From: Verrucomicrobiota bacterium
Lineage (GTDB): Bacteria; Verrucomicrobiota; Verrucomicrobiia; JADLBR01
DNA: 64,000 nucleotides
Assembly (NCBI GenBank): GCA_029560585.1
Contig: JAKQKQ010000061.1
Coordinates: forward strand, 1 to 64,000
Direction: 5' to 3'
Positions 15,208 to 18,099 of the stretch are shown here, in pieces (position 1 is the first letter of the stretch; every line of letters begins with the position of its first letter). Under the pieces are notes generated by a model. That model ran no database searches. It saw nothing but the letters and a program-made list of their open reading frames with translations, and had not been told where the DNA came from. Both the position numbers and the translations under genes were made by a program.

Positions 15208-15662
15208 CGACAGATATCGCTGCGGGCGACGACGCGATAGCCGGCGACGTTCAGGGCGGCCGCGGCGTATTCCTCCTCCTCGGTATGCAGCGCCAACAGG
15301 AATTTGCCCGAGTGCCGCGTGAGGAGCGGGAAGGTGTAGTCGATGTTGCACTCGGCCTGAAGGACGGCCGCCAGCACACCCTTGAGATTCGGTGGGCCGC
15401 TGATCTCGACCACGATCAGGCCCGATTCCGCGAACGTGAGGCCGGAGTCCGCGAGCACCCGCCTCAGGCTCTCGGGATCGTCCGGGACGAACCGCACCAC
15501 AGAGAATTCCCCGACGTTCTGCATGGAGTGCCCGAGCACGTGAATGCCCGCCGCGTCGAGTGTCCGGACCAGATCCAGCAGGCCACCCACCCGGTTCTCA
15601 AGGAGGACGGAGAACCCGACGATGCGGTCCCCGCACCGCGTCTTGGTGGCATCTTGCGTCAT
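15204..15662 (-). CDS. Two-ACT-domain protein
   Basis: A 152-residue cytoplasmic protein made of two ACT folds. The first is at about 13-75 (VGFSVLLENRVGGLLDLVRTLDAAGIHVLGHSM) and the second at about 82-150 (GLIVVEI through the IDYTFPLL segment). ACT pairs bind amino acids and regulate enzymes allosterically; with no catalytic domain here, a stand-alone ligand sensor is likely. It resembles small ACT proteins of PVC bacteria annotated only by domain. It is divergent from the yicC-gmk-coaC operon across about 100 bp, and its stop codon lies in a family D tail. Confidence 0.85.
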   Translation of the reverse strand: MTQDATKTRCGDRIVGFSVLLENRVGGLLDLVRTLDAAGIHVLGHSMQNVGEFSVVRFVPDDPESLRRVLADSGLTFAESGLIVVEISGPPNLKGVLAAVLQAECNIDYTFPLLTRHSGKFLLALHTEEEEYAAAALNVAGYRVVARSDICR

Positions 15663-15763
15663 GGCCGCCGCGTTCCTTCCGCAACATGGCCCCCGCCCTC
15701 GCGGAAGTCAACGGGCCGAGATTCGGCTGGCGCCGCGCCGATCGTCGGATAAGTAAGGTGGGC

Positions 15764-16633
15764 ATGCTGAGCATGACCGGATTTGGGAAGGCCCGCGTTC
15801 GCGCCGGGCAGGGCTGGCTCGTCGCCGAGATTAGCTCCGTCAACCGAAAGCAACTCGAGGTGGTCGTCAGCCTCCCGCGGGAGTGCGGTGAACTGGAGAA
15901 CGAGGTGCGCGAGACCGTGATGCCCGCGGCGACGCGGGGCCGCGTCCAGGTCGCAATCTATTACATGCCTCCGGCGGGCACGGGTTCTGGGCACATCAAC
16001 CACCGGGTTGCGGAGGCCTATGCGAAAGAGCTGGGCGTGCTCCGCCGCCGCCTGAGGCTGGTCGGCGAGGTCGCCTTGGCCGACGTGCTGCGGGCCCCCG
16101 GCGTCTTTGGCGAGGCACCGCTGCCGCCGCGCGGCGAACTGGTGCCCGCGCTCCGCGACGTCGCACGCCGGGCGGTCGTGGATTGGCAGCGGATGCGCCG
16201 CGCCGAAGGCCGGCACCTCGAGGCGGACCTCCGCCGCAGGCTGGCGAGGATGCGGGCCGCCTGCGGGCGGATCGAACGCCGCGCGCCCCGCGTGGTCGAA
16301 GCTTACCGCCGCGCGCTGGAGAAGCGGATGCGAGAGTTCGTCCCCGCCGCCGACGTCTCTGCCGAGTCGTTCCGGCGCGAGGTATTCCATTTCGCCGACC
16401 GCTGCGACATCTCGGAGGAGATCACTAGGTTGCGCAGCCACTTCGGACAGTTCGCGGCGTTCCTGCGAGGCGGCGAGGGCAACGGCCGCAGACTCGAGTT
16501 CCTCCTCCAGGAGATCCACCGGGAGGCCAACACCATAGGCTCCAAGGCGAACGACGTCGCCATCGCGCACGAGGTCGTGGATCTCAAATCCGAGATCGAA
16601 AAGGTCCGGGAACAGGTGCAGAATCTAGAATGA
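15764..16633 (+). CDS. yicC: YicC family endoribonuclease
   Basis: A 289-residue protein with the invariant YicC start MLSMTGFGKARV, an N-terminal YicC_N domain (to about 155) and a C-terminal DUF1732 domain with the diagnostic HFADRCDISEEITRLRSH and QEIHREANTIGSKAND segments. In E. coli YicC is a metal-dependent RNase that affects small-RNA turnover. The start follows AAGGTGG. The last bases overlap the gmk start (ATGA), so the two are translationally coupled, an arrangement widely conserved in bacteria. Confidence 0.95.
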   Translation: MLSMTGFGKARVRAGQGWLVAEISSVNRKQLEVVVSLPRECGELENEVRETVMPAATRGRVQVAIYYMPPAGTGSGHINHRVAEAYAKELGVLRRRLRLVGEVALADVLRAPGVFGEAPLPPRGELVPALRDVARRAVVDWQRMRRAEGRHLEADLRRRLARMRAACGRIERRAPRVVEAYRRALEKRMREFVPAADVSAESFRREVFHFADRCDISEEITRLRSHFGQFAAFLRGGEGNGRRLEFLLQEIHREANTIGSKANDVAIAHEVVDLKSEIEKVREQVQNLE

Positions 16634-17253
16634 ACAGGATGAATTACTTCCGCCGCTCCGGCATCATCTTTGCCGTCTCGGCACCCTCTGGCGCCGGGAA
16701 GAGCACCATCTGCGCCAACCTCAAGCAGACGCCCGATTTCCAGTATTCGATCTCGTGCACCACCCGGCCGCCGAGGGCGGGCGAGGAGGATGGCATCGAT
16801 TATCATTTTCTTTCCGAGGCCGAATTCGTCCGGCGCATCGGGGCGGGCGAGTTCTTGGAGCACGCGGCGTTCAACGGTTTTCGGTACGGCACCCTCAAGG
16901 CCACCACCCGCCAGGCGATCGAGGCCGGCACCGACCTCCTCTTGGACATTGACGTGAGCGGCGTCGCGCAGCTCCGCTCGCTCCCCGATCCGTGGATCAG
17001 GGATGCGCTGGTGGATATCTTCATCATGCCGCCCACGCTCGCCGAACTCGAGCGACGCCTGCGCAAGCGCGGCACCGAAAGCGACGCGCAGATCGCCGAA
17101 CGCCTCGATATCGCCCGCGTCGAGATGAGGTCCTGGCGCGACTACCGATACACGATTCTCAGCGGCACCATGGAGGAGGACCTCCAGAAGTTCCGCGCCA
17201 TCATCCGGGCCGAGCGCTACCGCTCGTCGCGGCTTACCCTCGAGGAGCAATGA
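16630..17253 (+). CDS. gmk: Guanylate kinase
   Basis: A 207-residue kinase converting GMP and ATP to GDP and ADP in nucleotide salvage and biosynthesis. The P-loop is S20-GAGKST26; the GMP-binding region has SCTTRPPRAGEEDGIDYHF, and the lid segment is RLRKRGTESDAQIAERLD. It starts inside the yicC stop and ends two bases before coaC. A rpoZ gene, often found between gmk and coaBC, is absent here. Confidence 0.97.
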   Translation: MNRMNYFRRSGIIFAVSAPSGAGKSTICANLKQTPDFQYSISCTTRPPRAGEEDGIDYHFLSEAEFVRRIGAGEFLEHAAFNGFRYGTLKATTRQAIEAGTDLLLDIDVSGVAQLRSLPDPWIRDALVDIFIMPPTLAELERRLRKRGTESDAQIAERLDIARVEMRSWRDYRYTILSGTMEEDLQKFRAIIRAERYRSSRLTLEEQ

Positions 17254-17255
17254 CC

Positions 17256-17810
17256 ATGTCCGACGGCCCAAAGACGATCCTGCTCGGCGTGACCGGTTCC
17301 ATCGCCGCGTACAAGGCGGCCGACATCGCCAGCGCCCTTACCAAGGCCGGCCACTCGGTCCACGCCGTGCTCACGGAGGAAGCCACCCACTATGTCACCC
17401 CCTTCCTCCTCCAGAACCTCACCCGCAACCACGTGACGGTCCGATTGCGCGACGAGGCGCCCGGCCGGCCGCCGCACATCGAGATCGCCGAGCGCGCCCA
17501 CCTGGCCCTCGTCGCGCCCGCGACGGCAAACCTCATCGCCAAACACGCGCTCGGCATCGCCGACGACGCCCTCACCACGATCCTCCTCGCGACCCGCGCC
17601 CCCATGCTCTTCGCGCCGGCCATGAATGGCAACATGTGGCTCCATCCCGCAATCCAGGCACATGTCGCCACCCTAAAATTGCGCGGCGTGAGCTTCATCG
17701 GCCCGGACACCGGCATGCTCGCCTGCGGGTACGAGGGCATCGGACGCCTCTGGGACCCCGCCGGCATCGTCGCGCGCGCCATCGAGATCCTCGCGGCTTC
17801 TCCTGCCTGA
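17256..17810 (+). CDS. coaC: Phosphopantothenoylcysteine decarboxylase (CoaC domain only)
   Basis: A 184-residue HFCD-family flavoprotein that decarboxylates phosphopantothenoylcysteine in coenzyme A synthesis. The GVTGSIAAYKA start, FLLQNLTRN, the APATANLIAKHALGIADD FMN/substrate motif, PAMNGNMW and the flexible-flap GMLACGYEGIGR are all present. The CoaB ligase domain that is normally fused in bacteria is missing, as the frame stops after VARAIEILAASPA. CoaB must be encoded elsewhere. GAGGAG upstream supports ATG 17256; ATG 17250 is too close to it. It is the third gene of a tight operon. Confidence 0.92.
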   Translation: MSDGPKTILLGVTGSIAAYKAADIASALTKAGHSVHAVLTEEATHYVTPFLLQNLTRNHVTVRLRDEAPGRPPHIEIAERAHLALVAPATANLIAKHALGIADDALTTILLATRAPMLFAPAMNGNMWLHPAIQAHVATLKLRGVSFIGPDTGMLACGYEGIGRLWDPAGIVARAIEILAASPA

Positions 17811-17987
17811 CCAGCCATTGTGCCCAAAACACGCCCCCGATCATTTTGTTGGGGGCAAATCAAAAAATTTTTCAAATTTTTTCTTTTTCTTGTTGACGGA
17901 ATGTCGGATTGCGGACACTTTATTTCCATGGGCAGTTCCTTGAGTGCTGTCTCACGCGCCCCTGCGCGAGAAGGGGGGTGTCGTTAG
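17811..17987 (+). other. A/T-rich leader upstream of the 17-residue micro-gene
   Basis: A gene-free stretch whose composition breaks sharply from the GC-rich surroundings, with A- and T-tracts at about 17858-17890. A GCCCCC/GGGGGC stem at 17833-17856 may end coaC transcription, though no direct T-run follows. Downstream the transcript could pair CCCCT (about 17960) with the AGGGG just before the micro-gene start. Confidence 0.5.
17893..17924 (+). promoter_or_regulatory. Candidate promoter with UP-like A/T tracts
   Basis: TTGACG at 17893-17898 matches the -35 consensus well and is preceded by about 35 bp of A/T tracts resembling an UP element. The best -10 match (TTTATT at 17919-17924) sits 20 bp away and is weak, so only the -35 and UP part is convincing. 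It points at the micro-gene. Confidence 0.35.
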
Positions 17988-18041
17988 ATGCCAGCTAAGA
18001 AGAAAGCTAAGAAGAAAGTTGCGAAGAAGAAGCGTTTCTAA
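17988..18041 (+). CDS. 17-residue lysine-rich micro-protein
   Basis: ATG to TAA encodes MPAKKKAKKKVAKKKRF: ten lysines and one arginine in 17 residues. The repeat unit (AKKK, V/A, AKKK) resembles the tails of bacterial histone-H1-like proteins and a minimal nucleic-acid- or ribosome-binding peptide. A G-run (AGGGGGG) about 8 bases upstream can serve as ribosome site. A strong terminator lies 30 bp after the stop, and a promoter-like A/T-rich leader lies upstream, so the unit is autonomous. Lysine codons are mostly AAG. Function is unknown. It could instead be the decoded part of a small RNA or a leader peptide, but no regulated gene follows on this strand. Confidence 0.6.
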   Translation: MPAKKKAKKKVAKKKRF

Positions 18042-18071
18042 GGTGACGCGCTTCGGCGCACGCTTCTGGAG

Positions 18072-18099
18072 GGCCCCCGCAAGGGGGCCTTCTTTTTTT
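18072..18099 (+). terminator. Rho-independent terminator of the micro-gene
   Basis: A perfect 7-bp GC stem (GGCCCCC with GGGGGCC) around a GCAA tetraloop is followed by TTCTTTTTTT. It is among the clearest intrinsic terminators in the window and lies 30 bp after the micro-gene stop. Confidence 0.9.

What the first reader, a model, noticed from the sequence alone, without database searches (positions are those of the whole stretch)
17893..18099. Autonomous transcription unit for a 17-residue lysine-rich peptide
MPAKKKAKKKVAKKKRF is encoded between an A/T-rich promoter-like leader and a textbook terminator, with a G-rich ribosome site. The leader could fold CCCCT against AGGGG over that site, hinting at control. 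Histone-H1-like lysine tails are known in PVC bacteria, but a free 17-mer would be unusual; it may coat nucleic acid, modulate ribosomes or be a dual-function small RNA.
Basis: partly seen in the sequence, partly recalled or inferred. Interest (0 to 1): 0.72.

Follow-up and report, generated by a model that had tools for sequence, protein, structure and literature searches.

The report
Free lysine-tail micropeptide gene
A real, conserved gene, missed because it is so short, makes a free 17-residue peptide that is little more than a run of lysines; the same kind of 11-30-residue peptide turns up as its own small gene in many bacterial groups, and it probably works as a miniature histone-H1-like coat for DNA or RNA.

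Summary
MPAKKKAKKKVAKKKRF (17988-18041) sits in its own unit, from a TTGACG box (17893) through a leader and a G-rich ribosome site to a terminator (to ~18099). The congener keeps this unit about 96% identical while the flanking spacers cannot be aligned. The peptide is the conserved product: pN/pS is 0.10 over 11 clades (0.13 outside the search pattern) and indels are in frame. At least 20 families of the class carry a positional or near-identical counterpart (13-70 aa), mostly in two conserved places: after yicC-gmk-dfp, as here, or before a 3'-5' exonuclease-like gene. At the dfp locus a sister family (f2) and f19 encode 50-70 aa KAP-rich proteins that resemble chlamydial HC2 below the family cut-off, so the 17-mer is a miniature H1-like tail protein. 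A scan of named genomes found the same free 11-30 aa Lys/Ala peptides in many other phyla (48 of 80 hits), while in viral contigs the motif is mostly a tail on larger proteins. The leader can mask the ribosome site; in family f12 the two ends of the mRNA are complementary. Attenuation, small-RNA-only and fragment readings are disfavoured. The function (electrostatic nucleic-acid binding) is inferred. I found no description of such peptides in the papers held.

The parts
17862..17898 (+). A/T-rich tract and TTGACG -35-like box (17893-17898); -10 not identifiable
   Evidence: Sequence; CTTTTTCTTGTTGACGGAA conserved in congener while upstream spacer is not. f12 and f19 units also start with TTGACA/TTGTTGACG. 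Promoter activity is inferred.
17925..17987 (+). Leader with two mutually exclusive hairpins: CGCGC-CCCT-GCGCG (17955-17968) or CCCCT/AGGGG masking the SD
   Evidence: Folding; 17942-17987 identical in both species. No covariation evidence (2 sequences).
17971..17980 (+). Shine-Dalgarno AAGGGGGGTG, 7 nt before the start codon
   Evidence: Sequence; GAAAGGGGG-type SD also precedes counterparts in f2, f12, f19, f41, f64, f80.
17988..18041 (+). Micro-ORF MPAKKKAKKKVAKKKRF
   Evidence: conserved frame, purifying selection, positional orthologues.
18068..18099 (+). Intrinsic terminator (11-pair hairpin and T-run)
   Evidence: conservation with the congener stops just after the T-run.
15560..17810 (+). 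Upstream genes yicC - gmk (16630-17253) - dfp/coaC-like flavoprotein (17250-17810), the conserved neighbourhood
   Evidence: Genes recognised from their translations; same order yicC-gmk-dfp-K-peptide in f19 and gmk-dfp-K-peptide in f2; dfp-K-peptide in f12 and f41.

Best explanation
A protein-coding micro-gene. A dedicated promoter makes a short mRNA whose leader holds a strong but partly masked ribosome site. The mRNA is translated into a 17-residue peptide of net charge about +10 (the initiator Met is probably removed before Pro), and transcription ends at the terminator. The peptide is a miniaturised, free-standing histone-H1-like lysine tail: disordered, binding DNA and/or RNA (or another polyanion) by charge, and so acting on nucleoid or RNP compaction. 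Shown here: gene structure, conserved frame, purifying selection, positional orthology to longer KAP-rich H1-like proteins, wide occurrence of free forms. Inferred: transcription, translation, disorder, nucleic-acid binding and physiological role.
For: Congener unit ~96% identical from -35 to T-run; ORF changes are 3 synonymous plus the last codon. pN/pS 0.10 over 11 clades, 0.13 for codons >=10 outside the search pattern. Counterparts of 13-70 aa with in-frame length changes at two conserved loci. f2 (50 aa) and f19 (70 aa) dfp-locus proteins match PF07382 HC2 at E about 5e-6 and NF038053 H1-like at 9e-5 and 7e-6, below curated cut-offs. The same Lys/Ala N-terminal tail is fused to HU/IHF, SWIB and SmpB domains elsewhere. 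Own genome has HU but no Hc1. Only composition (K, A, P, V), not exact sequence, is conserved across families, as expected for charge-based binding.
Against: No expression, peptide or binding data. The tail is also fused to enzymes (PFK, glyoxalase), so it is not exclusively a nucleic-acid module. Lys/Ala low complexity permits convergence, so homology between phyla is unproven. Family matches of the long forms are below curated cut-offs and partly compositional. Many class families showed no hit with the patterns used.
Confidence: 0.6

Rival explanations
1. Ribosome-associated micro-protein (like bTHX or bS22): the peptide threads into rRNA and stabilises a subunit.
For: Strong SD, single copy, very basic, conserved place, sizes similar to known extra ribosomal proteins; tail also found on SmpB, a ribosome-binding protein.
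Against: Length varies 13-70 aa at one kind of locus and only composition is conserved; known small r-proteins keep specific residues. No match in PDB chains for a 69-aa form or in NCBIfam/Pfam for short forms.
Confidence: 0.17
2. Regulatory RNA (or dual-function RNA) in which the ORF is secondary.
For: Leader is more conserved than the ORF between the two species; SD masking in f1, f12, f41, f64; f12 5' TGAAGTT and 3' AACTTCA complementary in nearly all of 10 sequences.
Against: Codon-level purifying selection in the clades tested and in-frame indels; leaders and 3' ends differ between families while the peptide persists; no Rfam match. The f12 closing stem does not covary.
Confidence: 0.1
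3. Lysine-codon leader peptide of a transcription attenuator (ORF followed by terminator, as in hisL or thrL).
For: Lys-rich ORF directly followed by a terminator with T-run.
Against: Here the next gene, pyrD, is convergent, so there is nothing to attenuate. Downstream genes elsewhere are an inositol-monophosphatase-like gene, an exonuclease, etc., not lysine genes.
Confidence: 0.03
4. Type I toxin-like peptide: toxic small protein kept silent by 5'-3' mRNA closure and SD masking.
For: f12 mRNA architecture (5'-3' pairing, masked SD) recalls hok mRNA (hok comparison from general knowledge).
Against: Peptide is not hydrophobic; no antisense RNA was identified; single copy in a vertically conserved place; longer H1-like orthologues.
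Confidence: 0.05
5. Non-functional stub left from a longer H1-like gene.
For: f2 and f19 have 50-70 aa versions at the same place.
Against: Kept in both species with few amino-acid changes and short in most families and phyla; leader and terminator intact.
Confidence: 0.04

Closest known systems
Chlamydial histone H1-like HC2 (PF07382) and Burkholderiales H1-like proteins (NF038053)
   Same: Lys/Ala(/Pro) repeat composition; longer positional orthologues give weak matches
   Different: 11-30 aa free forms, own small unit, no profile match for the short forms
Lys-rich tails of HU/IHF-, SWIB- or SmpB-type proteins
   Same: Same M(A/P)AKKKAKK module at the N-terminus
   Different: Here the tail is a free peptide with no folded domain
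Small ribosomal proteins bTHX and bS22 (from general knowledge)
   Same: Very short, very basic, single copy
   Different: Variable length and composition-only conservation; no sequence match found
hok-type type I toxin mRNAs (from general knowledge)
   Same: f12 mRNA ends complementary, SD masked
   Different: Non-hydrophobic peptide, no antisense RNA identified

Membership tests
HC2 / histone H1-like (PF07382, NF038053) | Profile score over curated cut-off | tested here: not met
   Short forms no hit; 50-70 aa orthologues 27 bits vs 40 (PF07382) and 23-26 vs 80 (NF038053)
HC2 / histone H1-like (PF07382, NF038053) | Lys/Ala/Pro-rich low-complexity composition | tested here: met
   All members listed
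HC2 / histone H1-like (PF07382, NF038053) | Binds and condenses DNA | not testable with these tools
   Needs a binding assay
Protein-coding gene | Selection on the encoded peptide | tested here: met
   pN/pS 0.10, 0.13 outside the pattern
Known Rfam RNA | Covariance model match at gathering score | tested here: not met
   only chance-level terminator matches
Leader-peptide attenuator | Co-directional amino-acid gene after the terminator | tested here: not met
   pyrD is convergent; other downstream genes unrelated to lysine
Type I toxin | Small hydrophobic membrane peptide | tested here: not met
   Peptide is Lys/Ala with no hydrophobic stretch
Type I toxin | Antisense RNA partner | not testable with these tools
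   Needs transcript data
Small ribosomal protein (bTHX, bS22) | Sequence match to a known small ribosomal family | tested here: inconclusive
   No NCBIfam/Pfam hit for 20-27 aa forms, but the 17-mer itself is too short to scan

The most novel reading that the evidence does not exclude
Bacteria of many phyla carry an undescribed class of self-standing lysine-tail micropeptide genes (11-30 aa, own promoter, strong ribosome site and terminator) that supply a diffusible, H1-tail-like polycation for nucleoid or RNP compaction, in some clades switched by an RNA fold that masks the ribosome site.
Probability: 0.4. Interest if true: 0.8.

Novelty: new variant of a known kind. Interest (0 to 1): 0.64.

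Why it matters
Peptides this short fall below usual gene-calling limits (sORFdb reports that families under 30 aa are scarce, PMC11796252), so a common, selected, highly cationic gene product may be absent from annotation across bacteria. If it binds nucleic acid it would be among the smallest chromatin-like proteins under selection, and it can be tested directly in cultivable hosts by tagging, deletion and small-protein proteomics.

Tried and rejected
Rfam searches of window and counterparts: nothing real. Relaxed pattern phylum-wide became noise similar to reversed controls outside the class, bar a few true cases. Literature searches for AKKK-type peptides or small Lys-rich proteins found nothing relevant. 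Covariation test on f12: closing stem and terminator hardly vary, so it neither proves nor refutes the fold. Upstream 19-codon ORF (17928-17987) abutting the start codon: conserved in the congener, not pursued. Attenuator and toxin readings rejected as above. Structure prediction was not run: the 17-residue Lys peptide is too short and would be uninformative. Organism naming: class taken as Verrucomicrobiae-like from relatives' genome sizes only; not proven.

Full report
Observation. The unit is as described: TTGACG at 17893, leader, AAGGGGGGTG at 17971, ATG 17988 to TAA 18041, terminator 18068-18099. The -10 is not recognisable. The peptide MPAKKKAKKKVAKKKRF has 9 Lys and 1 Arg. No similar ORF arises in 40 Markov versions of the window, and the genome (7.06 Mb, 336 contigs) has no second Lys array of this type.

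Conservation. The only congener found keeps the unit about 96% identical from the -35 box to the T-run; the spacer before the A/T tract and the sequence after the T-run are not alignable. In the ORF there are three synonymous changes and a changed last codon (F to R). A pattern scan of the class found about one micro-ORF locus per positive genome, in many families, with no reversed-control match in 384 genomes. Sequences include MPAKKKAKKKVAKKKK, MAAKKKAKKAKKK, MAAKKKAKKAPAKKKAAAKKKKH and MAKKKKAAKKKKK. pN/pS is 0.10 across 11 clades and 0.13 for codons 10 onward, which the search patterns constrain little.

Place. In this genome the gene follows yicC-gmk-dfp and faces pyrD. f12 and f41 also have it after dfp/coaBC. 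A dfp-anchored search showed a 50-aa KAP-rich protein at the same place in f2 (same order) and a 70-aa one in f19, both with GAAAGGGGG-type ribosome sites. A second conserved place is before an exonuclease-like gene (MATLVFDIETSALP...): f17, f18, f22, f25, f28, f31, f39, f42, f44 and f58 carry 13-69 aa versions there, some with GTG starts that the patterns had missed. f9, f14, f34 and f36 lack it next to the exonuclease, and in f23 it lies elsewhere. Same place, same composition and variable length identify the 17-mer as a short form of an H1-like tail protein. The 50- and 70-aa forms match HC2 (PF07382) at E about 5e-6 but below the curated cut-off, so I do not file it as HC2.

Beyond the class. 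Of 80 listed hits, 48 are free peptides of 30 aa or less, most with ribosome sites, in records labelled Acidobacteria (MAAKKKAKKKR), Alpha-, Beta- and Gammaproteobacteria, Nitrospirae, Chloroflexi, Actinomycetota, Patescibacteria and archaea. Several have a terminator-like hairpin and a promoter-like leader of their own. The long hits carry the same tail on HU/IHF, SWIB, SmpB, PFK and glyoxalase domains. In viral contigs only 7 of 59 are 30 aa or less, and most of these lack a ribosome site. Homology across phyla cannot be shown for such simple sequence; recurrent origin is possible.

RNA. SD masking is predicted in f1, f12, f41 and f64 but less in Betaproteobacteria. In f12 the 5' end (TGAAGTT) is complementary to AACTTCA before the terminator and the SD to TCCTT. 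These stems barely vary, so covariation is silent. Regulation is plausible, not shown.

Mechanism. The best reading is a translated, charge-driven nucleic-acid-binding micropeptide. My confidence that it is a selected protein-coding gene is about 0.95; that the role is nucleic-acid binding or compaction about 0.6. The main rival is ribosome association.

Novelty. No paper found describes such peptides (the library is open-access only). sORFdb notes that families under 30 aa are scarce (PMC11796252). I call it a new variant of a known kind: H1-like lysine-tail proteins reduced to a free micropeptide.

Noticed in passing
window 17928-17987 +: A 19-codon ORF (MGSSLSAVSRAPAREGGCR) whose TAG directly abuts the micro-ORF start; one change (L to M) in the congener. 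Possible translational coupling or chance.
   Followed up: partly
window 14999, 18439, 22536, 24816, 27219: Dispersed palindrome CATGTTTCACGCGGAAGCG(TGAAACATG), 5 copies within 2 mismatches where 0.01 are expected: REP-like element.
   Followed up: partly
L022-L027, L089-L092 (f12): mRNA ends complementary (TGAAGTT / AACTTCA) with masked SD and a 3' hairpin, recalling closed hok-type mRNAs.
   Followed up: partly
L032, L033, L034, L036, L039, L246, L248, L256: Terminator hairpin with conserved arms CCAGGATGG / CCATCCTGG after the K-peptide in several families.
   Followed up: partly
L041 (G309), L035 (G371), L131: Lys-rich N-terminal extensions of the same type on an RpoD-like sigma factor, a mannose-1-phosphate guanylyltransferase-like protein and a phosphofructokinase.
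   Followed up: no
L266, L268, L283 and others (viral contigs): Small phage-like proteins of 55-62 aa with the motif MAAKKKAKK followed by a conserved domain (...YPSAYANAWLVRTYKKRGGGY), unidentified.
   Followed up: no
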